Shown in pieces: positions 30,061 through 64,000 of a stretch of DNA of 64,000 nucleotides; the first letter of the stretch is position 1, and each line of letters begins with the position of its first letter. The notes beneath the pieces were generated by a model. The model was not told the origin of the DNA. It made no database searches and saw only the letters and a list, made by a program, of their open reading frames with translations. This DNA is from Meghimatium bilineatum (taxonomy: Eukaryota > Mollusca > Gastropoda > Stylommatophora > Philomycidae): assembly GCA_034231615.1 (NCBI GenBank), contig CM067306.1, positions 31,690,617 to 31,754,616 on the forward strand, read 5' to 3'. A program made the translations under genes and the position numbers.

Positions 30061-30065
30061 TATTT

Positions 30066-31227: not shown

Positions 31228-31756
31228 GCATAGGATTTGTTGCAAAAGGAGAATAGGAATGGCTAAAAATACTTTTAATATATGAGGAAAATATTAGCAT
31301 CTAAACAAATTACAAACAAGCTAAAAATGAGAATTATAAAAAGTTACATGTAATCTATATTAATGTATGGTCCAGAAACATGGACACTGAACAAACAATA
31401 AGACAAAATTTATGCTTTTGAGATGTGGATATATAGAAGAATAGGGAGAACATCATGGAAAGAGAAGAAAACAAAGAGGTTCTAACAACACTTAGAACGA
31501 AGGAGGAATTATTGAAGGAAACAACGATCAGGCAAATAAAATATTTTTGACACATTAAAAGACATGACACTTTCTTGAAGACCTTGAGGGTAAATTTGAA
31601 AGGAGGAGAGCACGAGGTAGACAGTGATATAAGTGGGAGAGTAACATCTCAAGATGGACAGGTTAGTCTAGAAGAGTGCACCACCAAAACAAGAGACATG
31701 GGATGTTGGAGGTCTGTTGCAGCCAACCTTCGTTGTGGAGAAGACACTTGATGATG
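31228..31756 (+). mobile_element. LINE 3' fragment (family A)
   Basis: Plus frames give 'RIGMAKNTF', 'SKQITNKLKMRIIKSYM', 'MYGPETWTLNKQ', 'FEMWIYRRIGRTSWKEKKTN', 'IRQIKYF-HIKRHDTFLKTL' and finally 'ECTTKTRDMGCWRSVAANLR'. This is the full post-palm part of an ORF2. It is the last identifiable element before the satellite. Confidence 0.85.
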
Positions 31757-31868
31757 GTGCAGTAGAATAGTTTAGTAGCCCTTGGTACAGTAGAATAGTT
31801 TAGCCGCCCTTGGTACAGTAGAATAGTTTAGTAGCCCTTGGTACAGTAGAATAGTTTAGAAGCCCTTG
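31757..31868 (+). repeat. Minisatellite, 28-bp unit, about 4 copies, at the satellite border
   Basis: 'agtagcccttggtacagtag' plus 'aatagttt' is repeated between the LINE 3' end and the first satellite monomer. One unit has 'gccgccc'. Confidence 0.9.
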
Positions 31869-32530
31869 TTTGTATGTTGCATATTTACATACAAAGTACA
31901 TTTCATAAAAATGTTTACTTCTGAATTTTGCACTATAGGAACTAAGTAGAAAAAATAATGTGTTTATATGTAATATATTTATATACAAGGAAAATTTTAT
32001 AAAAATATTTACTTCTGATTTTTGTACTATAGGAACTAAGTAGATATAGAATGTGTTTATATGTCACATAAAAAAAGATAATTCTTTTTAAATGTTTATT
32101 TTTTGAATTTTGCACTATAGGATCTAAGTAGAAAAATAATGTGTTAAAATGTTGCATATTTACATACAAAGTATATAATATAATAATGTTTCCTTCTGAA
32201 TTTTGCACTATAAGAACTAAATAGAAAATGAATGTGTTTATATGTCGCATAAAAAGAAAAATTTTTAAATGTTTATAAGAATGTGTTAATATGGCGCATA
32301 TATACATACAAAGTATATTTTTTTTAAATGTTTAACTTCTGGATTTTGCACTATTGGAACTAAGCAGAAAAAGAATGTGTTTATATGACATATATTTATA
32401 TACAAGGTAAATATTGAAAAATATTTACTTCTGATGTTTGCACTATAGGAACTAAGTAGAAAAAGAATGTGTTAATATGTCGCATATTTACATACAAAGT
32501 ATATTTTATAAAAATGTTTACTTCTGAAAT
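31869..32530. repeat. Diverged edge monomers of the satellite
   Basis: Monomers at the left boundary differ from the internal consensus more often, through substitutions and small indels, and do not fall into the ordered A-G pattern. This edge decay is typical where unequal exchange no longer homogenises units. Confidence 0.7.
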
Positions 32531-35500
32531 TTGCACTATAGGAACTAAGTAGAAAAAGAATGTGTTTATGTAGCATAAATATAAAATAGTAAATTTTTTA
32601 AATGTTTTTTTTTTGAATTTTGCTCTATAGGAACTAAGTAGAAAAAGAATGTGTTTATATGTCATATATACAAGGTAAATTTTATAAAAATATTTACTTC
32701 TGATTTTTGCACTATAGGAATTAAGTAGAAATGGAATGTGTTTATATGTCGCATAAAAAGAAATTTTTAAAAAATGTTTATAAGAATGTTTTAATATGCC
32801 GCATATTTACATACAAAGTATATTTTATAAAAATGTTTACTTCTGAATTTTGCACTATAGAAACTAGGTAGAAAAAAATAATGTCATAGGAACTAAGTAG
32901 AAAAAGAATGTGTTTATATGTCATATATTTATATACAAGGTAAATTTTATAAAAATATTTACTTCTGATTTTTGCATCATAGGATCTAAGCAGTAAAAGA
33001 ATGTGTTTATGTAGCATAAATATAAAATAGTAAATTTTTTTAATGTTTATTTTTTGAATTTTGCACTATAGGAATTAAGTAGAAAAAGAATGTGTTTATA
33101 TGTCGCATCAAAAGAAATTTTTTTATAAGAATGTGTTAATATGGCGCATATTTACATACAAAGTATATTTTATAAAAATGTTTACTTCTGAATTTTGCAC
33201 TATAGGAACTAAGTAGAAATAGAATGTAGCATAAAAAAGAAAATTCTTTTTTAATGTTTATCTTTTGAATTTTGCACTATAGGAATTAAGTAGAAAAAGA
33301 ATGTGTTTATATGTCATATATACAAGGTAAATTTTATAAAAATATTTACTTCTGATTTTTGCACTATAGGAATTAAGTAGAAATGGAATGTGTTTATATG
33401 TCGCGTAAAAAGAAATTTAAAAAAAATGTTTATAAGAATGTGTTAATATGGCGCATATTTACATACAAAGTATATTTTATAAAAATGTTTACTTCTGAAT
33501 TTTGCACTATAGAAACTAGGTAGAAAAAAATAATGTCATAGGAACTAAGTAGAAAAAGAATGTGTTTATATGTCATATATTTATATACAAGGTAAATTTT
33601 ATAAAAATATTTACTTCTGATTTTTGCATCATAGGATCTAAGCAGTAAAAGAATGTGTTTATGTAGCATAAATATAAAATAGTAAATTTTTTTAATGTTT
33701 ATTTTTTGAATTTTGCACTATAGGAATTAAGTAGAAAAAGAATGTGTTTATATGTCGCATCAAAAGAAAAATTTTAAAATTTTTTATAAGAATGTGTTAA
33801 TATGGCGCATATTTACATACAAAGTATATTTTATAAAAATGTTTACTTCTGAATTTTGCACTATTGGAACTAAGCAGAAAAAAATGTGTTTATATGTCAT
33901 ATATTTATATACAAGGTAAATTTTATAAAAATATTTACTTCTGATTTTTGCACTATAGGAACTAAGTAGAAATAGAATGTATTTATGTACATAAATATAA
34001 AATAGTAAATTTTTTTAATGTTTATTTTTTGAATTTTTCACTATAGGAATTAAGTAGAAAAAGAATGTGTTTATATGTCATATATACAAGGTAAATTTTA
34101 TAAAAATATTTACTTCTGATTTTTGCACTATAGGAATTAAGTAGAAAAAGAATGTGTTTATATGTCGCATCAAAAGACGTTTTTTTATAAGAATGTGTTA
34201 ATATGGCGCATATTTACATACAAAGTATATTTTATAAAAATGTTTACTTCTGAATTTTGCACTATTGGAACTAAGCAGATAAAAATGTGTTTATATGTCA
34301 TATATTTATATACAAGGTATATTTTATAAAAATATTTACTTCCTATTTTTGCACTATAGGAACTAAGTAGAAATAGAATGTAGCATAAAAAAAGAAAATT
34401 ATTTTTAAATGTTAATTTTTTTAATTTTGCACTATAGGATCTAAGTAGTAAAAGAATGTGTTTATGTACATAAATATAAAATAGTAAATTTTTTTAATGT
34501 TTATTTTTTGAATTTTGCACTATAGGAATTAAGTAGAAAAAGAATGTGTTTATATGTCATATATACAAGGAAAATTTTATAAAAATATTTACTTCTGATT
34601 TTTGCACTATAGGAATTAAGTAGAAATGGAATGTGTTTATATGTCACATAAAAAGAAAAAAGGAAATTTTATAAAAATGTTTATTTTTTGAATTTTGCAC
34701 TATAGGATCTAAGCAGTAAAAGAATGTGTTTATATAGTAGCATAAATATAAAATAGTAAATTTTTGTGATGTTTATTTTTTAAATTTTGCACTATAGGAA
34801 TTAAGTAGAAAAAGAATGTGTTTATATGTCGCATCAAAAGAAAATTTTTAAAATTTATTATAAGAATGTATTAATATGGCGCATATTTACATACAAAGTA
34901 TATTTTATAAAAATGTTTACTTCTGAATTTTGCACTATTGGAACTAAGCAGAAAAAAATGTGTTTATATGTCATATATTTATATACAAGGTAAATTTTAG
35001 TAAAATATTTACTTCTGATTTTTGCACTATAGGAACTAAGTAGAAATAGAATGTGTTTATATGTAGCATAAAAAAAGAATATTCTTTTTAAATGTTAATT
35101 TTTTGAATTTCTACTATAGGATTTAAGTAGAAAAGGAATGTATTTATATGTCATATATACAAGGTAAATTTTATAAAAATATTTACTTCTGATTTTTGCA
35201 CTATAGGAATTAAGTAGAAATAGAATGTGTTTATATGTCGCATAAAAAGATAATTTTTAAAAATGTTTATAAGAATGTGTTAATATGGCGCATATTTACA
35301 TACAAAGTATATTTTATACAAATGTTTACTTCTGAATTTTGCACTATAGAAACTAGGTAAAAAAAAATGTCATAAGAACTAAGTAGAAAAAGAATGTGTT
35401 TATATGTCATATATTTATATACAAGGTAAATTTTATAAAAATATTTACTTCTGATTTTTGCATCATAGGAACTAAGTAGAAAAAGAATGTGTTTATATGT

Positions 35501-38500
35501 CACATAAAAAGAAAAAGGAAATTTTATAAAAATGTTTATTTTTGAATTTTGCACTATAGGAACTAAGTAGAAATAGAATGTGTTTATATGTAGCATAAAA
35601 AAAGAATATTCTTTTTAAATGTTAATTTTTGGAATTTTGCACTATAGGATCTAAGTAGTAAAAGAATGTGTTTATGTACATAAATATAAAATAGTAAATT
35701 TTTTAATGTTTATTTTTTGAATTTTGCACTATAGGAATTAAGTAGAAAAAGAATGTGTTTATATGTCATATATACAAGGTAAATTTTATAAAAATATTTA
35801 CTTCTGATTTTTGCACTATAGGAATTAAGAAGAAATAGAATGTGTTTATATGTCATATATAAAGAAAAATTTTTTTAATGTTTATAAGAATGTGTTAATA
35901 TGGCGCATATTTACATACAAAGTATATTTTATAAAAATGTTTACTTCTGAATTTTGCACTATAGAAACTAGGTAGAAAAAAATAATGTCATAGGAACTAA
36001 TTAGAAAAAGAATGTGTTTATATGTCAAATATTTATATACAAGGTAAATTTTATAAAAATATTTACTTCTGATTTTTGCACTATAGGAACTAAGTAGAAA
36101 TAGAATGTGTTTATATGTAGCATAAAAAAAGAATATTCTTTTTAAATGTTAATTTTTTGAATTTTGCACTATAGGATTTAAGTAGAAAAGGAATGTATTT
36201 ATATGTCATATATACAAGGTAAATTTTATAAAAATATTTACTTCTGATTTTTGCACTATAGGAATTAAGTAGAAATAGAATGTGTTTATATGTCGCATAA
36301 AAAGAAAATTTTTAAAAATGTTTATAAGAATGTGTTAATATGGCGCATATTTACATACAAAGTATATTTTATACAAATGTTTACTTCTGAATTTTGCACT
36401 ATAGAAACTAGGTAAAAAAAAATGTCATAAGAACTAAGTAGAAAAAGAATGTGTTTATATGTCATATATTTATATACAAGGTAAATTTTATAAAAATATT
36501 TACTTCTGATTTTTGCATCATAGGAACTAAGTAGAAAAAGAATGTGTTTATATGTCACATAAAAAGAAAAAGGAAATTTTATAAAAATGTTTATTTTTGA
36601 ATTTTGCACTATAGGAACTAAGTAGAAAAAGAATGTGTTTATGTAGCATAAATATAAAATAGTAAATTTTTTAAATGTTTATTTTTTGAATTTTGCTCTA
36701 TAGGAACTAAGTAGAAAAAGAATGTGTTTATATGTCATATATACAAGGTAAATTTTATAAAAATATTTACTTCTGAGTTTTGCACTATAGGAATTAAGTA
36801 GAAATGGAATGTGTTTATATGTCGCATAAAAAGAAATTTTTAAAAAATGTTTATAAGAATGTTTTAATATGCCGCATATTTACATACAAAGTATATTTTA
36901 TAAAAATGTTTACTTCTGAATTTTGCACTATAGAAACTAGGTAGAAAAAAATAATGTCATAGGAACTAAGTAGAAAAAGAATGTGTTTATATGTCATATA
37001 TTTATATACAAGGTAAATTTTATAAAAATATTTACTTCTGATTTTTGCATCATAGGATCTAAGCAGTAAAAGAATGTGTTTATGTAGCATAAATATAAAA
37101 TAGTAAATTTTTTTAATGTTTATTTTTTGAATTTTGCACTATAGGAATTAAGTAGAAAAAGAATGTGTTTATATGTCGCATCAAAAGAAATTTTTTTATA
37201 AGAATGTGTTAATATGGCGCATATTTACATACAAAGTATATTTTATAAAAATGTTTACTTCTGAATTTTGCACTATAGGAACTAAGTAGAAATAGAATGT
37301 AGCATAAAAAAGAAAATTCTTTTTTAATGTTTATCTTTTGAATTTTGCACTATAGGAATTAAGTAGAAAAAGAATGTGTTTATATGTCATATATACAAGG
37401 TAAATTTTATAAAAATATTTACTTCTGATTTTTGCACTATAGGAATTAAGTAGAAATGGAATGTGTTTATATGTCGCGTAAAAAGAAATTTAAAAAAAAT
37501 GTTTATAAGAATGTGTTAATATGGCGCATATTTACATACAAAGTATATTTTATAAAAATGTTTACTTCTGAATTTTGCACTATAGAAACTAGGTAGAAAA
37601 AAATAATGTCATAGGAACTAAGTAGAAAAAGAATGTGTTTATATGTCATATATTTATATACAACGTAAATTTTATAAAAATATTTACTTCTGATTTTTGC
37701 ATCATAGGATCTAAGCAGTAAAAGAATGTGTTTATGTAGCATAAATATAAAATAGTAAATTTTTTTAATGTTTATTTTTTGAATTTTGCACTATAGGAAT
37801 TAAGTAGAAAAAGAATGTGTTTATATGTCGCATCAAAAGAAAATTTTTAAAATTTTTTATAAGAATGTGTTAATATGGCGCATATTTACATACAAAGTAT
37901 ATTTTATAAAAATGTTTACTTCTGAATTTTGCACTATTGGAACTAAGCAGATAAAAATGTGTTTATATGTCATATATTTATATACAAGGTATATTTTATA
38001 AAAATATTTACTTCCTATTTTTGCACTATAGGAACTAAGTAGAAATAGAATGTAGCATAAAAAAAGAAAATTATTTTTAAATGTTAATTTTTTTAATTTT
38101 GCACTATAGGATCTAAGTAGTAAAAGAATGTGTTTATGTACATAAATATAAAATAGTAAATTTTTTTAATGTTTATTTTTTGAATTTTGCACTATAGGAA
38201 TTAAGTAGAAAAAGAATGTGTTTATATGTCATATATACAAGGAAAATTTTATAAAAATATTTACTTCTGATTTTTGCACTATAGGAATTAAGTAGAAATG
38301 GAATGTGTTTATATGTCACATAAAAAGAAAAAAGGAAATTTTATAAAAATGTTTATTTTTTGAATTTTGCACTATAGGATCTAAGCAGTAAAAGAATGTG
38401 TTTATATAGTAGCATAAATATAAAATAGTAAATTTTTGTGATGTTTATTTTTTAAATTTTGCACTATAGGAATTAAGTAGAAAAAGAATGTGTTTATATG

Positions 38501-41500
38501 TCGCATCAAAAGAAAATTTTTAAAATTTATTATAAGAATGTATTAATATGGCGCATATTTACATACAAAGTATATTTTATAAAAATGTTTACTTCTGAAT
38601 TTTGCATTATTGGAACTAAGCAGAAAAAAATGTGTTTATATGTCATATATTTATATACAAGGTAAATTTTAGTAAAATATTTACTTCTGATTTTTGCACT
38701 ATAGGAACTAAGTAGAAATAGAATGTGTTTATATGTAGCATAAAAAAAGAATATTCTTTTTAAATGTTAATTTTTTGAATTTCTACTATAGGATTTAAGT
38801 AGAAAAGGAATGTATTTATATGTCATATATACAAGGTAAATTTTATAAAAATATTTACTTCTGATTTTTGCACTATAGGAATTAAGTAGAAATAGAATGT
38901 GTTTATATGTCGCATAAAAAGAAAATTTTTAAAAATGTTTATAAGAATGTGTTAATATGGCGCATATTTACATACAAAGTATATTTTATACAAATGTTTA
39001 CTTCTGAATTTTGCACTATAGAAACTAGGTAAAAAAAAATGTCATAAGAACTAAGTAGAAAAAGAATGTGTTTATATGTCATATATTTATATACAAGGTA
39101 AATTTTATAAAAATATTTACTTCTGATTTTTGCATCATAGGAACTAAGTAGAAAAAGAATGTGTTTATATGTCACATAAAAAGAAAAAGGAAATTTTATA
39201 AAAATGTTTATTTTTGAATTTTGCACTATAGGAACTAAGTAGAAATAGAATGTGTTTATATGTAGCATAAAAAAAGAATATTCTTTTTAAATGTTAATTT
39301 TTGGAATTTTGCACTATAGGATCTAAGTAGTAAAAGAATGTGTTTATGTACATAAATATAAAATAGTAAATTTTTTAATGTTTATTTTTTGAATTTTGCA
39401 CTATAGGAATTAAGTAGAAAAAGAATGTGTTTATATGTCATATATACAAGGTAAATTTTATAAAAATATTTACTTCTGATTTTTGCACTATAGGAATTAA
39501 GAAGAAATAGAATGTGTTTATATGTCATATATAAAGAAAAAATTTTTAAATGTTTATAAGAATGTGTTAATATGGCGCATATTTACATACAAAGTATATT
39601 TTATAAAAATGTTTACTTCTGAATTTTGCACTATAGAAACTAGGTAGAAAAAAATAATGTCATAGGAACTAATTAGAAAAAGAATGTGTTTATATGTCAA
39701 ATATTTATATACAAGGTAAATTTTATAAAAATATTTACTTCTGATTTTTGCACTATAGGAACTAAGTAGAAATAGAATGTGTTTATATGTAGCATAAAAA
39801 AAGAATATTCTTTTTAAATGTTAATTTTTTGAATTTTGCACTATAGGATTTAAGTAGAAAAGGAATGTATTTATATGTCATATATACAAGGTAAATTTTA
39901 TAAAAATATTTACTTCTGATTTTTGCACTATAGGAATTAAGTAGAAATAGAATGTGTTTATATGTCGCATAAAAAGAAAATTTTTAAAAATGTTTATAAG
40001 AATGTGTTAATATGGCGCATATTTACATACAAAGTATATTTTATACAAATGTTTACTTCTGAATTTTGCACTATAGAAACTAGGTAAAAAAAAATGTCAT
40101 AAGAACTAAGTAGAAAAAGAATGTGTTTATATGTCATATATTTATATACAAGGTAAATTTTATAAAAATATTTACTTCTGATTTTTGCATCATAGGAACT
40201 AAGTAGAAAAAGAATGTGTTTATATGTCACATAAAAAGAAAAAGGAAATTTTATAAAAATGTTTATTTTTGAATTTTGCACTATAGGAACTAAGTAGAAA
40301 AAGAATGTGTTTATGTAGCATAAATATAAAATAGTAAATTTTTTAAATGTTTATTTTTTGAATTTTGCTCTATAGGAACTAAGTAGAAAAAGAATGTGTT
40401 TATATGTCATATATACAAGGTAAATTTTATAAAAATATTTACTTCTGATTTTTGCACTATAGGAATTAAGTAGAAATGGAATGTGTTTATATGTCGCATA
40501 AAAAGAAATTTTTAAAAAATGTTTATAAGAATGTTTTAATATGCCGCATATTTACATACAAAGTATATTTTATAAAAATGTTTACTTCTGAATTTTGCAC
40601 TATAGAAACTAGGTAGAAAAAAATAATGTCATAGGAACTAAGTAGAAAAAGAATGTGTTTATATGTCATATATTTATATACAAGGTAAATTTTATAAAAA
40701 TATTTACTTCTGATTTTTGCATCATAGGATCTAAGCAGTAAAAGAATGTGTTTATGTAGCATAAATATAAAATAGTAAATTTTTTTAATGTTTATTTTTT
40801 GAATTTTGCACTATAGGAATTAAGTAGAAAAAGAATGTGTTTATATGTCGCATCAAAAGAAAAATTTTAAAATTTTTTATAAGAATGTGTTAATATGGCG
40901 CATATTTACATACAAAGTATATTTTATAAAAATGTTTACTTCTGAATTTTGCACTATTGGAACTAAGCAGAAAAAAATGTGTTTATATGTCATATATTTA
41001 TATACAAGGTAAATTTTATAAAAATATTTACTTCTGATTTTTGCACTATAGGAACTAAGTAGAAATAGAATGTGTTTATGTACATAAATATAAAATAGTA
41101 AATTTTTTTAATGTTTATTTTTTGAATTTTTCACTATAGGAATTAAGTAGAAAAAGAATGTGTTTATATGTCATATATACAAGGTAAATTTTATAAAAAT
41201 ATTTACTTCTGATTTTTGCACTATAGGAATTAAGTAGAAAAAGAATGTGTTTATATGTCGCATCAAAAGACGTTTTTTTATAAGAATGTGTTAATATGGC
41301 GCATATTTACATACAAAGTATATTTTATAAAAATGTTTACTTCTGAATTTTGCACTATTGGAACTAAGCAGAAAAAAATGTGTTTATATGTCATATATTT
41401 ATATACAAGGTAAATTTTATAAAAATATTTACTTCTGATTTTTGCACTATAGGAACTAAGTAGAAATAGAATGTGTTTATGTACATAAATATAAAATAGT

Positions 41501-44100: not shown

Positions 44101-47100
44101 CACTATAGGAACTAAGTAGAAATAGAATGTGTTTATATGTAGCATAAAAAAAGAATATTCTTTTTAAATGTTAATTTTTGGAATTTTGCACTATAGGATC
44201 TAAGTAGTAAAAGAATGTGTTTATGTACATAAATATAAAATAGTAAATTTTTTAATGTTTATTTTTTGAATTTTGCACTATAGGAATTAAGTAGAAAAAG
44301 AACGTGTTTATATGTCATATATACAAGGTAAATTTTATAAAAATATTTACTTCTGATTTTTGCACTATAGGAATTAAGAAGAAATAGAATGTGTTTATAT
44401 GTCATATATAAAGAAAATTTTTTAAAATGTTTATAAGAATGTGTTAATATGGCGCATATTTACATACAAAGCATATTTTATAAAAATGTTTACTTCTGAA
44501 TTTTGCACTATAGAAACTAGGTAGAAAAAAATAATGTCATAGGAACTAAGTAGAAAAAGAATGTGTTTATATGTCATATATTTATATACAAGGTAAATTT
44601 TATAAAAATATTTACTTCTGATTTTTGCATCATAGGAACTAAGTAGAAAAAGAATGTGTTTATATGTCACATAAAAAGAAAAAGGAAATTTTATAAAAAT
44701 GTTTATTTTTGAATTTTGCACTATAGGAACTAAGTAGAAATAGAATGTGTTTATATGTAGCATAAAAAAAGAATATTCTTTTTAAATGTTAATTTTTGGA
44801 ATTTTGCACTATAGGATCTAAGTAGTAAAAGAATGTGTTTATGTACATAAATATAAAATAGTAAATTTTTTAATGTTTATTTTTTGAATTTTGCACTATA
44901 GGAATTAAGTAGAAAAAGAATGTGTTTATATGTCATATATACAAGGAAAATTTTATAAAAATATTTACTTCTGATTTTTGCACTATAGGAATTAAGTAGA
45001 AATGGAATGTGTTTATATGTCACATAAAAAGAAAAAAGGAAATTTTATAAAAATGTTTATTTTTTGAATTTTGCACTATAGGATCTAAGCAGTAAAAGAA
45101 TGTGTTTATATAGTAGCATAAATATAAAATAGTAAATTTTTGTGATGTTTATTTTTTAAATTTTGCACTATAGGAATTAAGTAGAAAAAGAATGTGTTTA
45201 TATGTCGCATCAAAAGAAAATTTTTAAAATTTATTATAAGAATGTATTAATATGGCGCATATTTACATACAAAGTATATTTTATAAAAATGTTTACTTCT
45301 GAATTTTGCACTATTGGAACTAAGCAGAAAAAAATGTGTTTATATGTCATATATTTATATACAAGGTAAATTTTAGTAAAATATTTACTTCTGATTTTTG
45401 CACTATAGGAACTAAGTAGAAATAGAATGTGTTTATATGTAGCATAAAAAAAGAATATTCTTTTTAAATGTTAATTTTTTGAATTTCTACTATAGGATTT
45501 AAGTAGAAAAGGAATGTATTTATATGTCATATATACAAGGTAAATTTTATAAAAATATTTACTTCTGATTTTTGCACTATAGGAATTAAGTAGAAATAGA
45601 ATGTGTTTATATGTCGCATAAAAAGAAAATTTTTAAAAATGTTTATAAGAATGTGTTAATATGGCGCATATTTACATACAAAGTATATTTTATACAAATG
45701 TTTACTTCTGAATTTTGCACTATAGAAACTAGGTAAAAAAAAATGTCATAAGAACTAAGTAGAAAAAGAATGTGTTTATATGTCATATATTTATATACAA
45801 GGTAAATTTTATAAAAATATTTACTTCTGATTTTTGCATCATAGGAACTAAGTAGAAAAAGAATGTGTTTATATGTCACATAAAAAGAAAAAGGAAATTT
45901 TATAAAAATGTTTATTTTTGAATTTTGCACTATAGGAACTAAGTAGAAATAGAATGTGTTTATATGTAGCATAAAAAAAGAATATTCTTTTTAAATGTTA
46001 ATTTTTGGAATTTTGCACTATAGGATCTAAGTAGTAAAAGAATGTGTTTATGTACATAAATATAAAATAGTAAATTTTTTAATGTTTATTTTTTGAATTT
46101 TGCACTATAGGAATTAAGTAGAAAAAGAATGTGTTTATATGTCATATATACAAGGTAAATTTTATAAAAATATTTACTTCTGATTTTTGCACTATAGGAA
46201 TTAAGAAGAAATAGAATGTGTTTATATGTCATATATAAAGAAAAATTTTTTAAATGTTTATAAGAATGTGTTAATATGGCGCATATTTACATACAAAGTA
46301 TATTTTATAAAAATGTTTACTTCTGAATTTTGCACTATAGAAACTAGGTAGAAAAAAATAATGTCATAGGAACTAATTAGAAAAAGAATGTGTTTATATG
46401 TCAAATATTTATATACAAGGTAAATTTTATAAAAATATTTACTTCTGATTTTTGCACTATAGGAACTAAGTAGAAATAGAATGTGTTTATATGTAGCATA
46501 AAAAAAGAATATTCTTTTTAAATGTTAATTTTTTGAATTTTGCACTATAGGATTTAAGTAGAAAAGGAATGTATTTATATGTCATATATACAAGGTAAAT
46601 TTTATAAAAATATTTACTTCTGATTTTTGCACTATAGGAATTAAGTAGAAATAGAATGTGTTTATATGTCGCATAAAAAGAAAATTTTTAAAAATGTTTA
46701 TAAGAATGTGTTAATATGGCGCATATTTACATACAAAGTATATTTTATACAAATGTTTACTTCTGAATTTTGCACTATAGAAACTAGGTAAAAAAAAATG
46801 TCATAAGAACTAAGTAGAAAAAGAATGTGTTTATATGTCATATATTTATATACAAGGTAAATTTTATAAAAATATTTACTTCTGATTTTTGCATCATAGG
46901 AACTAAGTAGAAAAAGAATGTGTTTATATGTCACATAAAAAGAAAAAGGAAATTTTATAAAAATGTTTATTTTTGAATTTTGCACTATAGGAACTAAGTA
47001 GAAATAGAATGTGTTTATATGTAGCATAAAAAAAGAATATTCTTTTTAAATGTTAATTTTTGGAATTTTGCACTATAGGATCTAAGTAGTAAAAGAATGT

Positions 47101-47770
47101 GTTTATGTACATAAATATAAAATAGTAAATTTTTTAATGTTTATTTTTTGAATTTTGCACTATAGGAATTAAGTAGAAAAAGAACGTGTTTATATGTCAT
47201 ATATACAAGGTAAATTTTATAAAAATATTTACTTCTGATTTTTGCACTATAGGAATTAAGAAGAAATAGAATGTGTTTATATGTCATATATAAAGAAAAT
47301 TTTTTAAAATGTTTATAAGAATGTGTTAATATGGCGCATATTTACATACAAAGCATATTTTATAAAAATGTTTACTTCTGAATTTTGCACTATAGAAACT
47401 AGGTAGAAAAAAATAATGTCATAGGAACTAAGTAGAAAAAGAATGTGTTTATATGTCATATATTTATATACAAGGTAAATTTTATAAAAATATTTACTTC
47501 TGATTTTTGCATCATAGGAACTAAGTAGAAAAAGAATGTGTTTATATGTCACATAAAAAGAAAAAGGAAATTTTATAAAAATGTTTATTTTTGAATTTTG
47601 CACTATAGGAACTAAGTAGAAATAGAATGTGTTTATATGTAGCATAAAAAAAGAATATTCTTTTTAAATGTTAATTTTTGGAATTTTGCACTATAGGATC
47701 TAAGTAGTAAAAGAATGTGTTTATGTACATAAATATAAAATAGTAAATTTTTTAATGTTTATTTTTTGAA
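42000..47770. repeat. 2,882-bp tandem duplication within the satellite
   Basis: Segments from about 42.0-44.9 kb and 44.9-47.8 kb match at an offset of 2,882 bases and share private variants. Examples are 'aacgtgttta' at 44301 and 47183, and 'aaagcatatttta' at 44469 and 47351. Confidence 0.85.
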
Positions 47771-50700
47771 TTTTGCACTATAGGAATTAAGTAGAAAAAG
47801 AATGTGTTTATATGTCATATATACAAGGTAAATTTTATAAAAATATTTACTTCTGATTTTTGCACTATAGGAATTAAGAAGAAATAGAATGTGTTTATAT
47901 GTCATATATAAAGAAAATTTTTTTAAATGTTTATAAGAATGTGTTAATATGGCGCATATTTACATACAAAGTATATTTTATAAAAATGTTTACTTCTGAA
48001 TTTTGCACTATAGAAACTAGGTAGAAAAAAATAATGTCATAGGAACTAATTAGAAAAAGAATGTGTTTATATGTCATATATTTATATACAAGGTAAATTT
48101 TATAAAAATATTTACTTCTGATTTTTGCATCATAGGAACTAAGTAGAAAAAGAATGTGTTTATATGTCACATAAAAAGAAAAAGGAAATTTTATAAAAAT
48201 GTTTATTTTTGAATTTTGCACTATAGGAACTAAGTAGAAATAGAATGTGTTTATATGTAGCATAAAAAAAGAATATTCTTTTTAAATGTTAATTTTTTGA
48301 ATTTTGCACTATAGGAATTAAGTAGAAAAAGAATGTATGTCATATATACAAGGTAAATTTTATAAAAATATTTACTTCTGATTTTTGCACTATAGGAATT
48401 AAGTAGAAATAGAATGTGTTTATATGTCGCATAAAAAGAAAATTTTTAAAAATGTTTATAAGAATGTGTTAATATGGCGCATATTTACATACAAAGTATA
48501 TTTTATAAAAATGTTTACTTCTGAATTTTGCACTATAGAAACAAGGTAGAAAAAAATAATGTCATAGGAACTAAGTAGAAAAAGAATTTGTTTATATGTC
48601 ATATATTTATGTACAAGGTAAATTTTATAAAAATATTTACTTCTGATTTTTGCATCATAGGAACTAAGTAGAAAAAGAATGTGTTTATATGTCACATAAA
48701 AAGAAAAAGGAAATTTTATAAAAATGTTTATTTTTGAATTTTGCACTATAGGAACTAAGTAGAAATAGAATGTGTTTATATGTAGCATAAAAAAAGAATA
48801 TTCTTTTTAAATGTTAATTTTTGGAATTTTGCACCATAGGATCTAAGTAGTAAAAGAATGTGTTTATGTACATAAATATAAAATAGTAAATTTTTTAATG
48901 TTTATTTTTTGAATTTTGCACTATAGGAATTAAGTAGAAAAAGAACGTGTTTATATGTCATATATACAAGGTAAATTTTATAAAAATATTTACTTCTGAT
49001 TTTTGCACTATAGGAATTAAGAAGAAATAGAATGTGTTTATATGTCATATATAAAGAAAATTTTTTAAAATGTTTATAAGAATGTGTTAATATGGCGCAT
49101 ATTTACATACAAAGTATATTTTATAAAAATGTTTACTTCTGAATTTTGCACTATAGAAACTAGGTAGAAAAAAATAATGTCATAGGAACTAAGTAGAAAA
49201 AGAATGTGTTTATATGTCATATATTTATATACAAGGTAAATTTTATAAAAATATTTACTTCTGATTTTTGCATCATAGGAACTAAGTAGAAAAAGAATGT
49301 GTTTATATGTCACAAAAAAAGAAAAAGGAAATTTTATAAAAATGTTTATTTTTGAATTTTGCACTATAGGAACTAAGTAGAAATAGAATGTGTTTATATG
49401 TAGCATAAAAAAAGAATATTCTTTTTAAATGTTAATTTTTTGAATTTTGCACTATAGGAATTAAGTAGAAAAGGAATGTATTTATATGTCATATATACAA
49501 GGTAAATTTTATAAAAATATTTACTTCTGATTTTTGCACTATAGGAATTAAGTAGAAATAGAATGTGTTTATATGTCACATAAAAAGAACATTTTTAAAA
49601 ATGTTTATAAGAATGTGTTAATATGGCGCATATTTACATACAAAGTATATTTTATAAAAATGTTTACTTCTGAATTTTGCACTATAGAAACAAGGTAGAA
49701 AAAAATAATGTCATAGGAACTAAGTAGAAAAAGAATTTGTTTATATGTCATATATTTATGTACAAGGTAAATTTTATAAAAATATTTACTTCTGATTTTT
49801 GCATCATAGGAACTAAGTAGAAAAAGAATGTGTTTATATGTCACATAAAAAGAAAAAGGAAATTTTATAAAAATGTTTATTTTTGAATTTTGCACTATAG
49901 GAACTAAGTAGAAATAGAATGTGTTTATATGTAGCATAAAAAAAGAATATTCTTTTTAAATGTTAATTTTTGGAATTTTGCACTATAGGATCTAAGTAGT
50001 AAAAGAATGTGTTTATGTACATAAATATAAAATAGTAAATTTTTTAATGTTTATTTTTTGAATTTTGCACTATAGGAATTAAGTAGAAAAAGAACGTGTT
50101 TATATGTCATATATACAAGGTAAATTTTATAAAAATATTTACTTCTGATTTTTGCACTATAGGAATTAAGAAGAAATAGAATGTGTTTATATGTCATATA
50201 TAAAGAAAAATTTTTTAAATGTTTATAAGAATGTGTTAATATGGCGCATATTTACATACAAAGCATATTTTATAAAAATGTTTACTTCTGAATTTTGCAC
50301 TATAGAAACTAGGTAGAAAAAAATAATGTCATAGGAACTAAGTAGAAAAAGAATGTGTTTATATGTCATATATTTATATACAAGATAAATTTTATAAAAA
50401 TATTTACTTCTGATTTTTGCATCATAGGAACTAAGTAGAAAAAGAATGTGTTTATATGTCACAAAAAAAGAAAAAGGAAATTTTATAAAAATGTTTATTT
50501 TTGAATTTTGCACTATAGGAACTAAGTAGAAATAGAATGTGTTTATATGTAGCATAAAAAAAGAATATTCTTTTTAAATGTTAATTTTTTGAATTTTGCA
50601 CTATAGGAATTAAGTAGAAAAGGAATGTATTTATATGTCATATATACAAGGTAAATTTTATAAAAATATTTACTTCTGATTTTTGCACTATAGGAATTAA

Positions 50701-53700: not shown

Positions 53701-56700
53701 TGCACTATTGAAACTAGGTAGAAAAAAATAATGTCATAGGAACTAAGTAGAAAAAGAATGTGTTTATATGTCATATATTTATATACAAGGTAAATTTTAT
53801 AAAAATATTTACTTCTTTTTTTGCATCATAGGAACTAAGTAGAAAAAGAATGTGTTTATATGTCACATAAAAAGAAAAAGGAAATTTTATAAAAATGTTT
53901 ATTTTTGAATTTTGCACTATAGGAACTAAGCAGTAAAAGAATGTTTTTATGTAGCATAAATATAAAATAGTAAATTTTTTTAATGTTTATTTTTTGAATT
54001 TTGCTCTATAGGATATAGTAGAAAAAGAATGTGTTTATATGTCATATATACAAGGAAAATTTTATAAAATATTTACTTCTGATTTTTGCACTATAGGAAT
54101 TAAGTAGAAAAAGAATGTGTTTATATGTCGCATCAGAAGAAAAATTTTTAAATTTTTTATAAGAATGTGTTAATATGGCGCATATTTACATACATAGTAT
54201 ATTTTATAAAAATGTTTACTTCTGAATTTTGCACTATTGGAACTAAGCAGAAAAAAATGTGTTTATATGTCAAATATTTATATACAAGGTAAATTTTATA
54301 AAAATATTTACTTCTGATTTTTGCACTATAGGAACTAAGTAGAAATAGAATGTGTTTATATGTAGCATAAAAAAAGAATATTCTTTTTAAATGTTAATTT
54401 TTTGAATTTTGCACTATAGGATTTAAGTAGAAAAGGAATGTATTTATATGTCATATATACAAGGTAAATTTTATAAAAATATTTACTTCTGATTTTTGCA
54501 CTATAGGAATTAAGTAGAAATAGAATGTGTTTATATGTCGCATAAAAAGAAAATTTTTAAAAATGTTTATAAGAATGTGTTAATATGGCGCATATTTACA
54601 TACAAAGTATATTTTATACAAATGTTTACTTCTGAATTTTGCACTATAGAAACTAGGTAAAAAAAAATGTCATAAGAACTAAGTAGAAAAAGAATGTGTT
54701 TATATGTCATATATTTATATACAAGGTAAATTTTATAAAAATATTTACTTCTGATTTTTGCATCATAGGAACTAAGTAGAAAAAGAATGTGTTTATATGT
54801 CACATAAAAAGAAAAAGGAAATTTTATAAAAATGTTTATTTTTGAATTTTGCACTATAGGAACTAAGTAGAAATAGAATGTGTTTATATGTAGCATAAAA
54901 AAAGAATATTCTTTTTAAATGTTAATTTTTGGAATTTTGCACTATAGGATCTAAGTAGTAAAAGAATGTGTTTATGTACATAAATATAAAATAGTAAATT
55001 TTTTAATGTTTATTTTTTGAATTTTGCACTATAGGAATTAAGTAGAAAAAGAATGTGTTTATATGTCATATATACAAGGTAAATTTTATAAAAATATTTA
55101 CTTCTGATTTTTGCACTATAGGAATTAAGAAGAAATAGAATGTGTTTATATGTCATATATAAAGAAAATTTTTTTAAATGTTTATAAGAATGTGTTAATA
55201 TGGCGCATATTTACATACAAAGTATATTTTATAAAAATGTTTACTTCTGAATTTTGCACTATAGAAACTAGGTAGAAAAAAATAATGTCATAGGAACTAA
55301 TTAGAAAAAGAATGTGTTTATATGTCATATATTTATATACAAGGTAAATTTTATAAAAATATTTACTTCTGATTTTTGCATCATAGGAACTAAGTAGAAA
55401 AAGAATGTGTTTATATGTCACATAAAAAGAAAAAGGAAATTTTATAAAAATGTTTATTTTTGAATTTTGCACTATAGGAACTAAGTAGAAATAGAATGTG
55501 TTTATATGTAGCATAAAAAAAGAATATTCTTTTTAAATGTTAATTTTTTGAATTTTGCACTATAGGAATTAAGTAGAAAAAGAATGTATGTCATATATAC
55601 AAGGTAAATTTTATAAAAATATTTACTTCTGATTTTTGCACTATAGGAATTAAGTAGAAATAGAATGTGTTTATATGTCGCATAAAAAGAAAATTTTTTA
55701 AAATGTTTATAAGAATGTGTTAATATGGCGCATATTTACATACAAAGTATATTTTATAAAAATGTTTACTTCTGAATTTTGCACTATAGAAACTAGGTAG
55801 AAAAAAATAATGTCATAGGAACTAAGTAGAAAAAGAATGTGTTTATATGTCATATATTTATGTACAAGGTAAATTTTATAAAAATATTTACTTCTGATTT
55901 TTGCATCATAGGAACTAAGTAGAAAAAGAATGTGTTTATATGTCACATAAAAAGAAAAAGGAAATTTTATAAAAATGTTTATTTTTGAATTTTGCACTAT
56001 AGGAACTAAGTAGAAATAGAATGTGTTTATATGTAGCATAAAAAAAGAATATTCTTTTTAAATGTTAATTTTTGGAATTTTGCACTATAGGATCTAAGTA
56101 GTAAAAGAATGTGTTTATGTACATAAATATAAAATAGTAAATTTTTTAATGTTTATTTTTTGAATTTTGCACTATAGGAATTAAGTAGAAAAAGAATGTG
56201 TTTATATGTCATATATACAAGGTAAATTTTATAAAAATATTTACTTCTGATTTTTGCACTATAGGAATTAAGAAGAAATAGAATGTGTTTATATGTCATA
56301 TATAAAGAAAATTTTTTTAAATGTTTATAAGAATGTGTTAATATGGCGCATATTTACATACAAAGCATATTTTATAAAAATGTTTACTTCTGAATTTTGC
56401 ACTATAGAAACTAGGTAGAAAAAAATAATGTCATAGGAACTAAGTAGAAAAAGAATGTGTTTATATGTCATATATTTATATACAAGGTAAATTTTATAAA
56501 AATATTTACTTCTGATTTTTGCATCATAGGAACTAAGTAGAAAAAGAATGTGTTTATATGTCACAAAAAAAGAAAAAGGAAATTTTATAAAAATGTTTAT
56601 TTTTGAATTTTGCACTATAGGAACTAAGTAGAAATAGAATGTGTTTATATGTAGCATAAAAAAAGAATATTCTTTTTAAATGTTAATTTTTTGAATTTTG

Positions 56701-57680
56701 CACTATAGGAATTAAGTAGAAAAGGAATGTATTTATATGTCATATATACAAGGTAAATTTTATAAAAATATTTACTTCTGATTTTTGCACTATAGGAATT
56801 AAGTAGAAATAGAATGTGTTTATATGTCGCATAAAAAGAAAATTTTTTAAAATGTTTATAAGAATGTGTTAATATGGCGCATATTTACATACAAAGTATA
56901 TTTTATAAAAATGTTTACTTCTGAATTTTGCACTATAGAAACTAGGTAGAAAAAAATAATGTCATAGGAACTAAGTAGAAAAAGAATGTGTTTATATGTC
57001 ATATATTTATATACAAGGTAAATTTCATAAAAATATTTACTTCTGATTTGTGCATCATAGGAACTAAGTAGAAAAAGAATGTGTTTATATGTCACAAAAA
57101 AAGAAAAAGGAAATTTTATAAAAATGTTTATTTTTGAATTTTGCACTATAGGAACTAAGTAGAAATAGAATGTGTTTATATGTAGCATAAAAAAAGAATA
57201 TTCTTTTTAAATGTTAATTTTTTGAATTTTGCACTATAGGAATTAAGTAGAAAAGGAATGTATTTATATGTCATATATACAAGGTAAATTTTATAAAAAT
57301 ATTTACTTCTGATTTTTGCACTATAGGAATTAAGTAGAAATAGAATGTGTTTATATGTCGCATAAAAAGAAAATTTTTAAAAATGTTCATAAGAATGTGT
57401 TAATATGGCGCATATTTACATACAAAGTATATTTTATACAAATGTTTACTTCTGAATTTTGCACTATAGAAACTAGGTAGAAAAAAAAAATGTCATAGGA
57501 ACTAAGTAGAAAAAGAATGTGTTTATATGTCATATATTTATATACAAGGTAAATTTCATAAAAATATTTACTTCTGATTTTTGCATCATAGGAACTAAGT
57601 AGAAAAAGAATGTGTTTATATGTCACAAAAAAAGAAAAAGGAAATTTTATAAAAATGTTTATTTTTGAATTTTGCACTAT
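46698..57680. repeat. 618-bp higher-order repeat region with 531-bp variants
   Basis: The F-type anchor ('gtgttaatatggcgcat') recurs at 618-bp steps (for example 47313 to 47931, 48456 to 49074, 49605 to 50223, 50755 to 51373, 55707 to 56325). It also recurs at 531-bp steps (49074 to 49605, 56325 to 56856, 56856 to 57387). Monomer order in the long form is F-G-A-B-C-D-E; the short form lacks the 87-bp D monomer. Blocks about 47.9-49.4 and 55.2-56.7 kb repeat at an offset of 7,251. Confidence 0.9.
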
Positions 57681-60299
57681 AGGAACTAAGTAGAAATAGA
57701 ATGTATTTATATGTCATATATACAAGGTAAATTTTATAAAAATATTTACTTCTGATTTTTGCACTATAGGAATTAAGTAGAAATAGAATGTGTTTATATG
57801 TCGCATAAAAAGAAAATTTTTTTAAATGTTTATAAGAATGTGTTAATATGGCGCATATTTACATACAAAGTATATTTTATACAAATGTTTACTTCTGAAT
57901 TTTGCACTATAGAAACTAGGTAGAAAAAAAAAATGTCATAGGAAATAAGTAGAAAAAGAATGTGTTTATATGTCATATATTTATATACAAGGTAAATTTT
58001 ATAAAAATATTTACTTCTGATTTTTGCATCATAGGAACTAAGTAGAAAAAGAATGTGTTTATATGTCACATAAAAAGAAAAAGGAAATTTTATAAAAATG
58101 TTTATTTTTGAATTTTTCACTATAGGAACTAAGCAGTAAAAGAATGTTTTTATGTAGCATAAATATAAAATAGTAAATTTTTTTAATGTTTATTTTTTGA
58201 ATTTTGCTCTATAGGATATAGTAGAAAAAGAATGTGTTTATATGTCATATATACAAGGAAAATTTTATAAAAATATTTACTTCTGATTTTTGCACTATAG
58301 GAATTAAGTAGAAAAAGATTGTGTTTATATGTCGCATCAAAAGAAAATTTTTAAATTTTTATTATAAGAATGTGTTAATATGGCGCATATTTACATACAA
58401 AGTATATTTTATAAAAATGTTTACTTCTGAATTTTGCACTATTGGAACTAAGCAGAAAAAGAATGTGTTTATATGTCATATATTTATATACAAGGTATTT
58501 TTTATAAAAATATTTACTTCTGATTTTTGCATCATAGGAACTAAGTAGAAAAAGAATGTGTTTATATGTCACATAAAAAGAAAAAAGGACATTTTATAAA
58601 AATGTTTATTTTTTTAATTTTGCACTATAGGATCTAAGCAGTAAAAGAATGTGTTTATGTAGTAGCATAAATATAAAATAGTAAATTTTTTTGATGTTAA
58701 TTTTTTTAATTTTGCACTATAGGAATTAAGTAGAAAAAGAATGTGTTTATATGTCATATATACAAGGAAAATTTTATAAAATATTTACTTCTGATTTTTG
58801 CATCATAGGAACTAAGTAGAAAAAGAATGTGTTTATATGTCGCATCAAAAGAAAATTTTTTAAATTTTTTATAAGAATGTGTTAATATGGCGCATATTTA
58901 CATACAAAGTATATTTTATAAAAATGTTTACTTCTGAATTTTGCACTATTGGAACTAAGCAGAAAAAAATTTGTTTATATGTCATATATTTATATACAAG
59001 GTAAATTTTAGTAAAATATTTACTTCTGATTTTTGCACTATAGGAACTAAGTAGTAAAAGAATGTGTTTATGTACATAAATATAAAATAGTAAATTTTTT
59101 AATGTTTATTTTTTGAATTTTGCACTATAGGAATTAAGTAGAAAAAGAATGTGTTTATATGTCATATATACAAGGTAAATTTTATAAAAATATTTACTTC
59201 TGATTTTTGCACTATAGGAATTAAGTAGAAATAGAATGTGTTTATATGTCGCATAAAAATGAAATTTTTTAAAATGTTTATAAGAATGTGTTAATATGGC
59301 GCATATTTACATACAAAGTATATTTTATAAAAATGTTTACTTCTGAATTTTGCACTATAGAAACTAGGTAGAAAACAATAATGTCATAGGAACTAAGTAG
59401 AAAAAGAATGTGTTTATATGTCATATATTTATATACAAGGTAAATTTTATAAAAATATTTACTTCTTTTTTTGCATCATAGGAACTAAGTAGAAAAAGAA
59501 TGTGTTTATATGTCACATAAAAAGAAAAAGGAAATTTTATAAAAATGTTTATTTTTGAATTTTGCACTATAGGAACTAAGCAGTAAAAGAATGTTTTTAT
59601 GTAGCATAAATATAAAATAGTATATTTTTTTAATGTTTATTTTTTGAATTTTGCTCTATAGGATATAGTAGAAAAAGAATGTGTTTATATGTCATATATA
59701 CAAGGAAAATTTTATAAAATATTTACTTCTGATTTTTGCACTATAGGAATTAAGTAGAAAAAGAATGTGTTTATATGTCGCATCAAAAGAAAAATTTTTA
59801 AATTTTTTATAAGAATGTGTTAATATGGCGCATATTTACATACAAAGTATATTTTATAAAAATGTTTACTTCTGAATTTTGCACTATTGGAACTAAGCAG
59901 AAAAAAATGTGTTTATATGTCATATATTTATATACAAGGTAAATTTTAGTAAAATATTTACTTCTGATTTTTGCACTATAGGAACTAAGTAGAAAAAAGA
60001 ATGTGTTTATGTCGCAGAAATATAAAATAGTAAATTTTTTAATGTTTATTTTTTGAATTTTGCACTATAGGAATTAAGTAGAAAAAGAATGTGTTTATAT
60101 GTCATATATACAAGGTAAATTTTATAAAAATATTTACTTCTGATTTTTGCACTATAGGAATTAAGTAGAAATAAAATGTGTTTATATGTCGCATAAAAAG
60201 AAAATTTTTTAAAATGTTTATAATAATGTGTTAATATGGCGCATATTTACATACAAAGTATATTTTATAAAAATGTTTACTTCTGAATTTTGCACTATA

Positions 60300-63200
60300 G
60301 AAACTAGGTAGAAAAAAATAATGTCATAGGAACTAAGTAGAAAAAGAATGTGTTTATATGTCATATATTTATATACAAGGTAAATTTCATAAAAATATTT
60401 ACTTCTGATTTTTGCATCATAGGAACTAAGTAGAAAAAGAATGTGTTTATATGTCACAAAAAAAGAAAAAGGAAATTTTATAAAAATGTTTATTTTTGAA
60501 TTTTGCACTATAGGAACTAAGTAGAAATAGAATGTGTTTATATGTAGCATAAAAAAAGAATATTCTTTTTAAATGTTAATTTTTTGAATTTTGCACTATA
60601 GGAATTAAGTAGAAAAGGAATGTATTTATATGTCATATATACAAGGTAAATTTTATAAAAATATTTACTTCTGATTTTTGCACTATAGGAATTAAGTAGA
60701 AATAGAATGTGTTTATATGTCGCATAAAAAGAAAATTTTTAAAAATGTTTATAAGAATGTGTTAATATGGCGCATATTTACATACAAAGTATATTTTATA
60801 CAAATGTTTACTTCTGAATTTTGCACTATAGAAACTAGGTAGAAAAAAAAAATGTCATAGGAACTAAGTAGAAAAAGAATGTGTTTATATGTCATATATT
60901 TATATACAAGGTAAATTTTATAAAAATATTTACTTCTGATTTTTGCATCATAGGAACTAAGTAGAAAAAGAATGTGTTTATATGTCATATATTTATATAC
61001 AAGGTAAATTTTATAAAAATATTTACTTCTGATTTTTGCATCATAGGAACTAAGTAGAAAAAGAATGTGTTTATATGTCACATAAAAAGAAAAAGGAAAT
61101 TTTATAAAAATGTTTATTTTTGAATTTTGCACTATAGAAACTAGGTAGAAAAAAATAATGTCATAGGAACTAAGTAGAAAAAGAATGTGTTTATATGTCA
61201 TATATTTATATACAAGGTAAATTTCATAAAAATATTTACTTCTGATTTTTGCATCATAGGAACTAAGTAGAAAAAGAATGTGTTTATATGTCACAAAAAA
61301 AGAAAAAGGAAATTTTATAAAAATGTTTATTTTTGAATTTTGCACTATAGGAACTAAGTAGAAATAGAATGTGTTTATATGTAGCATAAAAAAAGAATAT
61401 TCTTTTTAAATGTTTATAAGAATGTGTTAATATGGCGCATATTTACATACAAAGTATATTTTATACAAATGTTTACTTCTGAATTTTGCACTATAGAAAC
61501 TAGGTAGAAAAAAAAAATGTCATAGGAACTAAGTAGAAAAAGAATGTGTTTATATGTCATATATTTATATACAAGGTAAATTTTATAAAAATATTTACTT
61601 CTGATTTTTGCATCATAGGAACTAAGTAGAAAAAGAATGTGTTTATATGTAACATAAAAAGAAAAAGGAAATTTTATAAAAATGTTTATTTTTGAATTTT
61701 GCACTATAGGAACTAAGCAGTAAAAGAATGTTTTTATGTAGCATAAATATAAAATAGTAAATTTTTTTAATGTTTATTTTTTGAATTTTGCTCTATAGGA
61801 TATAGTAGAAAAAGAATGTGTTTATATGTCATATATACAAGGAAAATTTTATAAAAATATTTACTTCTGATTTTTGCACTATAGGAATTAAGTAGAAAAA
61901 GATTGTGTTTATATGTCGCATCAAAAGAAAATTTTTAAATTTTTATTATAAGAATGTGTTAATATGGCGCATATTTACATACAAAGTATATTTTATAAAA
62001 ATGTTTACTTCTGAATTTTGCACTATTGGAACTAAGCAGAAAAAGAATGTGTTTATATGTCATATATTTATATACAAGGTATTTTTTATAAAAATATTTA
62101 CTTCTGATTTTTGCATCATAGGAACTAAGTAGAAAAAGAATGTGTTTATATGTCACATAAAAAGAAAAAAGGACATTTTATAAAAATGTTTATTTTTTTA
62201 ATTTTGCACTATAGGATCTAAGCAGTAAAAGAATGTGTTTATGTAGTAGCATAAATATAAAATAGTACATTTTTTTGATGTTTATTTTTTTAATTTTGCA
62301 CTATAGGAATTAAGTAGAAAAAGAATGTGTTTATATGTCATATATACAAGGAAAATTTTATAAAATATTTACTTCTGATTTTTGCACTATAGGAATTAAG
62401 TAGAAAAAGAATGTGTTTATATGTCGCATCAAAAGAAAATTTTTTAAATTTTTTATAAGAATGTGTTAATATGGCGCATATTTACATACAAAGTATATTT
62501 TATAAAAATGTTTACTTCTGAATTTTGCACTATTGGAACTAGGTAGAAAAAAATAATGTCATAGGAACTAAGTAGAAAAAGAATGTGTTTATATGTCATA
62601 TATTTATATACAAGGTAAATTTCATAAAAATATTTACTTCTGATTTTTGCATCATAGGAACTAAGTAGAAAAAGAATGTGTTTATATGTCACAAAAAAAG
62701 AAAAAGGAAATTTTATAAAAATGTTTATTTTTGAATTTTGCACTATAGGAACTAAGTAGAAATAGAATGTGTTTATATGTAGCATAAAAAAAGAATATTC
62801 TTTTTAAATGTTAATTTTTTGAATTTTGCACTATAGGAATTAAGTAGAAAAGGAATGTATTTATATGTCATATATACAAGGTAAATTTTATAAAAATATT
62901 TACTTCTGATTTTTGCACTATAGGAATTAAGTAGAAATAGAATGTGTTTATATGTCGCATAAAAAGAAAATTTTTAAAAATGTTTATAAGAATGTGTTAA
63001 TATGGCGCATATTTACATACAAAGTATATTTTATACAAATGTTTACTTCTGAATTTTGCACTATAGAAACTAGGTAGAAAAAAAAAATGTCATAGGAACT
63101 AAGTAGAAAAAGAATGTGTTTATATGTCATATATTTATATACAAGGTAAATTTTATAAAAATATTTACTTCTGATTTTTGCATCATAGGAACTAAGTAGA

Positions 63201-64000
63201 AAAAGAATGTGTTTATATGTCATATATTTATATACAAGGTAAATTTTATAAAAATATTTACTTCTGATTTTTGCATCATAGGAACTAAGTAGAAAAAGAA
63301 TGTGTTTATATGTCACATAAAAAGAAAAAGGAAATTTTATAAAAATGTTTATTTTTGAATTTTGCACTATAGAAACTAGGTAGAAAAAAATAATGTCATA
63401 GGAACTAAGTAGAAAAAGAATGTGTTTATATGTCATATATTTATATACAAGGTAAATTTCATAAAAATATTTACTTCTGATTTTTGCATCATAGGAACTA
63501 AGTAGAAAAAGAATGTGTTTATATGTCACAAAAAAAGAAAAAGGAAATTTTATAAAAATGTTTATTTTTGAATTTTGCACTATAGGAACTAAGTAGAAAT
63601 AGAATGTGTTTATATGTAGCATAAAAAAAGAATATTCTTTTTAAATGTTTATAAGAATGTGTTAATATGGCGCATATTTACATACAAAGTATATTTTATA
63701 CAAATGTTTACTTCTGAATTTTGCACTATAGAAACTAGGTAGAAAAAAAAAATGTCATAGGAACTAAGTAGAAAAAGAATGTGTTTATATGTCATATATT
63801 TATATACAAGGTAAATTTTATAAAAATATTTACTTCTGATTTTTGCATCATAGGAACTAAGTAGAAAAAGAATGTGTTTATATGTAACATAAAAAGAAAA
63901 AGGAAATTTTATAAAAATGTTTATTTTTGAATTTTGCACTATAGGAACTAAGCAGTAAAAGAATGTTTTTATGTAGCATAAATATAAAATAGTAAATTTT
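60300..64000. repeat. 2,235-bp tandem duplication at the right edge
   Basis: The block about 60300-62535 is repeated from about 62535 to the window end: anchors at 60749 and 62984, and 61414 and 63649. The junction monomer at 62531-62550 is a hybrid, beginning like the 'tattggaact' class and continuing as the 'aggtagaaaa' class. The second copy continues outside the window. Confidence 0.88.

What the first reader, a model, noticed from the sequence alone, without database searches (positions are those of the whole stretch)
31869..64000. Over 32 kb of a layered higher-order satellite
The array is built at three visible levels: 87-93 bp monomers of distinct types, a fixed seven-part 618-bp unit, and multi-kilobase blocks of those units. 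Higher-order organisation of this depth is classically described for primate alpha satellite; seeing it in what looks like an invertebrate makes this a candidate undescribed centromere- or heterochromatin-type satellite. Its chromosomal role is inference.
Basis: partly seen in the sequence, partly recalled or inferred. Interest (0 to 1): 0.72.

Follow-up and report, generated by a model that had tools for sequence, protein, structure and literature searches.

The report
Satellite array inside dispersed genomic repeat
A long stretch of layered tandem DNA that looked like a candidate centromere is one of many such arrays that start at the same point beside the same flanking sequence and lie scattered over many chromosomes, so it looks like cargo of a dispersed repeat and not a centromere.

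Summary
The array is real. It starts at window 31869, runs past the window end to 140,024 (108 kb), is on one strand and about 79% A+T. It has nine main monomer types in a nearly fixed order. The seven-part 618-bp unit exists but is not fixed: 11 of 51 units in the window, 15 of 193 in the whole array; other units skip monomers. Multi-kb blocks are exact or near-exact duplicates. The centromere reading is not supported. The flank-to-array edge recurs at 27 places, 25 of them beside a listed flank copy on the same strand. All 94 hits of a rare satellite variant lie downstream of a listed flank copy. Of 20 further flank copies probed, 15 carry the satellite. Probes from two other loci are collinear with 18-27 kb left of the array. 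Best explanation: the satellite is the tandem-repeat part of a dispersed, probably mobile, composite unit, and each array expands and is reshuffled in place. Precedents: oyster Helentron-borne repeats and Lathyrus retrotransposon-derived satellites. Unit ends, target-site duplications and an enzyme were not found.

The parts
31869..64000 (+). higher-order satellite array (window part; continues to 140,024 in window coordinates = C9 31,830,640)
31755..31868 (+). 28-bp tandem repeat (4.1 copies) immediately left of the array; its end and the array start form the edge found at 27 places in the genome
29050..30050 (+). flank segment with at least 40 near-full copies genome-wide (89-100% identity)
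   Evidence: 40 of 5713 candidates scored
25958..25990 (+). marker 33-mer of the flank: 165 hits genome-wide at up to 3 mismatches (first 100 listed); 33 of 40 listed flank copies have it 2.7-4.9 kb upstream on the same strand
4762..31868 (+). left flank collinear with C1 61.932-61.9625 Mb, and from 9562 to 27585 with C5 1.587-1.612 Mb; continuous comparison only from 26700 on, sampled by 250-bp probes left of that
   Evidence: 18 of 20 probes matched the C9 stretch; 17 at a collinear place over 215 bp or more, 82-98% identical
44387..45004 (+). one canonical seven-part unit sEACFDB, 618 bp; another at 47269-47886

Best explanation
The array is the tandem-repeat part of a dispersed composite unit that exists in tens of copies, while a part of its left flank exists in more than a hundred. 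Shown: the flank is repeated, the array begins at the same edge in 27 places, and flank and array keep the same order and strand. Inferred: the unit spread by transposition with a short founder array; each array then grew in place by unequal crossover or replication slippage, giving different lengths, HOR variants by skipping of monomers in a fixed order, and recent block duplications. It has no demonstrated role for the host; most likely it is a selfish repeat.
For: Window 29050-30050 has at least 40 near-full copies on 15 contigs, 24 plus and 16 minus. 94 of 94 places of a rare satellite 30-mer lie on the same strand less than 300 kb downstream of a listed flank copy, in 12 clusters; random placement explained at most 2 of 12 in 2000 trials. 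The edge pattern has 27 hits, its reversed control 0, and 25 of 27 lie 2.3-3.6 kb downstream of a listed flank copy on the same strand. 15 of 20 further flank copies probed about 1.5 kb past the expected edge hold satellite in the expected orientation. C1 and C5 flanks are collinear with the window in the probes. Two C9 units, whose flanks match at 100% over 1001 bases and at 100% as listed over 1501, have arrays of about 85.5 and 108.2 kb, which fits change of the array in place. The first 8 kb of the array are the most diverged.
Against: No transposase, terminal repeats or target-site duplication were found; the Pfam read-through scan of window 14001-31800 in six frames gave only a reverse-transcriptase fragment below the curated cut-off; window 1-14000 was not scanned in this way. 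2 of 27 edges are not near a listed flank copy. 67 of the first 100 marker hits are not near a listed flank copy. The right edge of the C9 array is shared only by the two C9 units. Neither end of the unit was reached. Identity along the flank is uneven (82-98%), and window 17600-19100 has its best 40 matches mostly elsewhere.
Confidence: 0.68

Rival explanations
1. The unit spread by segmental duplication (ectopic recombination between repeats), not by transposition; the satellite was simply inside the duplicated segment.
For: No transposase or ends found; the flank is a composite of other repeats; a tandem pair of the whole unit lies on C9.
Against: At least 40 copies on 15 contigs in both orientations, most of them 97-99% identical over the segment tested, and 165 marker hits are many for duplication alone.
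Confidence: 0.27
2. It is a centromeric satellite, the C9 array being the functional centromere.
For: C9 array at 0.466 and C1 array at 0.457 of their contigs; long, A+T rich, layered.
Against: Several arrays per contig spread over the arms; C9 alone has flank copies at 0.464, 0.466, 0.80 and 0.945, each with satellite.
Confidence: 0.07
3. Dispersed satellite with a host role (for example heterochromatin seeding, chromosome folding or meiotic pairing), carried by the unit but kept by selection.
For: Monomer order is kept and arrays are long. No call bears on function.
Against: A large length difference between two near-identical units and flank copies without satellite at the probed place suggest no constraint on length.
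Confidence: 0.1
4. Assembly artefact: collapsed or duplicated haplotypes create the arrays.
For: Two C9 units have flank segments matching at 100%.
Against: No N in the 264 kb joined; the same family recurs with diverged flanks on other contigs.
Confidence: 0.04

Closest known systems
Cg_HINE, non-autonomous Helentrons of Crassostrea gigas with central satDNA-like repeats (PMC7492417; passages read)
   Same: satellite-like tandem repeats sit beside fixed flanking modules and are dispersed with them; some are related to classical satellite
   Different: the carried arrays there are described as short; here two measured arrays are 85.5 and 108.2 kb and layered; no Helentron ends or enzyme shown here
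LTR-retrotransposon-derived satellites of Lathyrus sativus (PMC7004042; abstract and outline read)
   Same: short tandem arrays within dispersed elements that occasionally expand in length
   Different: there the carrier is known and expansion is mainly at primary constrictions; here the carrier is unidentified and arrays lie at many positions along the contigs. Whether higher-order layering is described there was not read
Higher-order satellites of Meloidogyne (PMC3694981; passages read)
   Same: higher-order repeats in an invertebrate, with long and short HOR variants differing by one monomer
   Different: not described as cargo of a dispersed unit in the passages read
Giant transposons such as Teratorn, 41-182 kb (PMC6431247; passages read)
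   Same: size range if flank and array move together
   Different: Teratorn has a transposase and about 90 other predicted genes; no gene set was found here
Primate alpha satellite (recalled, no call)
   Same: higher-order units of ordered, diverged monomers, with variants lacking some
   Different: here several sites per contig beside one flank; no CENH3 data

Membership tests
Centromeric HOR satellite (alpha-satellite-like) | ordered multi-monomer higher-order units | tested here: met
   nine main types; mean within-type identity 94-98% (50-bp type 89%), between modal forms 71-89% leaving out the 50- and 122-bp types
Centromeric HOR satellite (alpha-satellite-like) | one main site per monocentric chromosome | tested here: not met
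   up to four satellite sites per contig
Centromeric HOR satellite (alpha-satellite-like) | CENH3/CENP-A occupancy | not testable with these tools
   needs ChIP or CUT&RUN
Satellite carried by a dispersed element (HINE-like, retrotransposon-derived) | array begins at the same edge beside the same flank at many dispersed sites | tested here: met
   27 edges, 25 of 27 beside a listed flank copy
Satellite carried by a dispersed element (HINE-like, retrotransposon-derived) | shared right module | tested here: inconclusive
   right edge found only in the two C9 units; the search with the C1 right flank did not complete
Helentron/HINE | subterminal inverted repeats, 3' palindrome, no target-site duplication, T-rich site | not tested
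   unit ends not reached
Autonomous transposon | encodes its own enzyme | tested here: inconclusive
   only an RVT_1 fragment in window 14001-31800; of window 1-14000 only two open frames were searched, one with RNase_H; two open frames of 15425-15802 and 30766-31095 gave only sub-cutoff matches
LTR retrotransposon-derived satellite | long terminal repeats around the unit | not tested
   unit ends not reached

The most novel reading that the evidence does not exclude
A giant mobile element of well over 100 kb carries its own higher-order satellite: array and at least 27 kb of flank move together, so that alpha-satellite-like layered arrays are delivered along chromosome arms and evolve there in parallel in dozens of places.
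Probability: 0.2. Interest if true: 0.85.

Novelty: new variant of a known kind. Interest (0 to 1): 0.58.

Why it matters
Here one satellite family has tens of arrays that start from the same edge and flank, and one tandem pair whose sampled flank segments match at 100% while the arrays differ by about 23 kb. That is a replicated natural experiment on how higher-order repeats are born, lengthen and are reshuffled. It also warns that a layered array near the middle of a chromosome need not be its centromere.

Tried and rejected
Fixed 618-bp HOR: rejected, 46 unit forms. One-array-per-centromere: suggested by the C1 and C9 positions, rejected. Right-hand neighbour as part of the same unit: L017:8700-9700, in the virus-like stretch right of the C9 array and its second satellite, has 32 matches of 650 bp or more, and by eye only those on C7 and C9 lie within about 125 kb downstream of a listed flank copy, so it is mainly a separate dispersed family. 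I first read the open frames there as Polinton-like by eye; Pfam gave no polymerase or integrase match, only ankyrin repeats above cut-off, so that label is recalled and unproven. Window 17600-19100 as a copy-number marker: its best 40 hits are mostly elsewhere. Organism: not identified; CCCTAA telomere repeats at several contig starts and two contig starts with SSU rRNA were seen; three octopus-SINE-like test strings gave one match at up to 2 mismatches; a paper search by size and chromosome number found nothing. A short scan of one unit for inverted repeats gave only A+T-rich imperfect ones. Literature searches.

Full report
What is there. The window is C9 31,690,617-31,754,616 of a 1.61-Gb genome in 32 contigs; C9 is 68.0 Mb. 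The array begins at 31869 and, on the 200 kb fetched beyond the window, runs to 140,024 in window coordinates, 108,156 bp, with no N and no reverse-strand monomer core. GC falls from about 0.35 to 0.21. It ends in a second A+T-rich satellite of about 70-76 bp.

Monomers and units. Cutting at a conserved motif gave 1332 pieces in 31 clusters. After joining pieces of the 50-bp monomer there are 1243 tokens: s (50 bp, 197), E (122 bp, 123), G (92, 83), A (93, 201), C (91, 152), F (88, 83), K (91, 31), D (87, 148), B (87, 193), and 32 rare or composite tokens, which I did not split. In the window sEACFDB is the commonest, 11 of 51; copies that follow another token raise this to 13 in the window and 19 in all. 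The order is nearly acyclic: 958 of 1210 steps ascend, against 516 on average and 550 at most in 1000 shuffles; of 231 descending steps 192 follow B. So the array is a set of variants of one order in which monomers are skipped, not a fixed unit.

Larger layers and age. Exact stretches recur at lags 3672, 3822 and 2882 in the first part of the array; 8,864 bp recur at 99.5% at lag 8594 further on. Monomers in the first 4 kb are on average 90% identical to the modal form of their type, 93% in the second 4 kb, and 95-98% from the third bin on. This is the pattern expected of unequal exchange, with an older left edge (inference).

Where else it occurs. A 27-mer of the monomer core has 10,273 exact matches genome-wide (6151 and 4122 by strand; reversed control 0), against 134 in the C9 array; by proportion the family may total about 8 Mb (rough). 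A rare 30-mer variant has 94 matches, all listed, in 12 clusters on C1, C5 (three), C9 (two), C11, C19, C22 (two), C24 and C25.

The flank. The left flank of the C1 array matches window 26700-31930 at 90-95%. Window 29050-30050 found 40 near-full copies, 89-100% identical, on 15 contigs, 24 plus and 16 minus; only 40 of 5713 candidates were scored, so this is a floor. For the 37 copies on contigs whose length I had, they lie at 0.04 to 0.945 of the contig. All 94 satellite places lie on the same strand downstream of one of these copies, 3 to 247 kb away; in 2000 random trials at most 2 of 12 clusters were explained. That the arrays are unbroken from the flank to the farthest hit was not checked, except on C9 and, by samples, on C1, where the array ends between 62,044,400 and 62,048,000.

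The edge. A 34-base pattern across the last 28-bp repeat and the first monomer has 27 matches at up to 3 mismatches and none in the reversed control; 25 of 27 lie 2.3-3.6 kb downstream of a listed flank copy on the same strand. The other two are on C25, and one of them has the 25,958 marker 5.8 kb upstream. I probed 20 of the 27 flank copies not already known to have an array, about 1.5 kb past the expected edge: 15 of 20 hold satellite in the expected orientation; C7 30.1, C24 42.96, C20 26.6, C10 35.9 and C10 38.2 Mb do not. Of these five, C20 26.6 does have the edge, so its array is shorter than about 1.5 kb or is interrupted. With the 12 clusters and the second C9 unit, which were known from the satellite itself or its probes, 28 of 33 tested flank copies carry it; the unselected figure is 15 of 20. 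Seven of 40 remained unprobed and show no edge.

Extent of the unit. Ten 250-bp probes left of the C1 array and ten left of a C5 array were compared with the C9 stretch: 18 of 20 matched; 17 matched at a collinear place (window 4762-26106 for C1 and 9562-27585 for C5) over 215 bp or more, 82-98% identical; one (C5 1.610 Mb) matched only a short tandem repeat; one C1 and one C5 probe matched nothing. A marker at window 25958 has 165 hits at up to 3 mismatches; 33 of 40 flank copies have it 2.7-4.9 kb upstream, and 67 of the first 100 listed hits are elsewhere. So the left part is commoner than the array-bearing unit.

A tandem pair. A second unit lies 136 kb upstream on C9. Its flank matches at 100% over the 1001 bases of 29050-30050 and at 100%, as listed, over the 1501 bases of 17600-19100. 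Eleven of eleven probes between its edges are satellite; from edge to edge its array is 85,460 bp against 108,156. Both share the right edge, which occurs nowhere else at up to 3 mismatches. If the assembly is right, arrays change in length much faster than the flanks change in sequence.

Mechanism. Shown: dispersed flank, fixed edge, fixed order and strand, variable array. Inferred: a unit with a founder array was copied to many places, and each array then grew and was reshuffled in place. Whether copying was by transposition or by duplication is open: no enzyme, terminal repeats or target-site duplication were found, and neither end was reached.

Comparison. Satellite repeats carried by Helentrons in oyster (PMC7492417, passages) and satellites expanded from retrotransposon arrays in Lathyrus (PMC7004042, abstract and outline) are the nearest kinds. 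Higher-order repeats with a skipped monomer are known in Meloidogyne (PMC3694981, passages). What is added here is the joining of the two: long, layered arrays at a fixed edge of a many-copy dispersed unit. In the searches I saw no paper on this family; that is no proof of absence, since the library lacks most subscription papers.

Noticed in passing
window coordinates 140,025 to about 150,000 (L016/L017): A second A+T-rich satellite of about 70-76 bp with longer periods as well (420 among others) follows the array.
   Followed up: partly
L017:6100-10000 and L018 start (window coordinates about 150-155 kb): A dispersed element with ankyrin repeats and short open frames that look virus- or Polinton-like by eye; 32 matches of 650 bp or more, 88-100% identical; Pfam supports only the ankyrin repeats.
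   Followed up: partly
C1 array, L043 and the C1 left edge (L001-L008): Non-satellite inserts lie within the C1 array, and one insert appears twice in L043 with satellite between, so foreign DNA seems to have been taken up into the repeating unit (by eye).
   Followed up: no
window 1-31868 and 155-264 kb in window coordinates: Many minisatellites of 12-106 bp (for example 62.8 copies of 24 bp at 23129-24631), some open in several frames.
   Followed up: no
window 10482-11106: A dispersed repeat present as two inverted halves, with many copies in the right flank.
   Followed up: no
L024:8414-9718 (minus): Open frame of 435 aa with a DDE_3 transposase domain.
   Followed up: no
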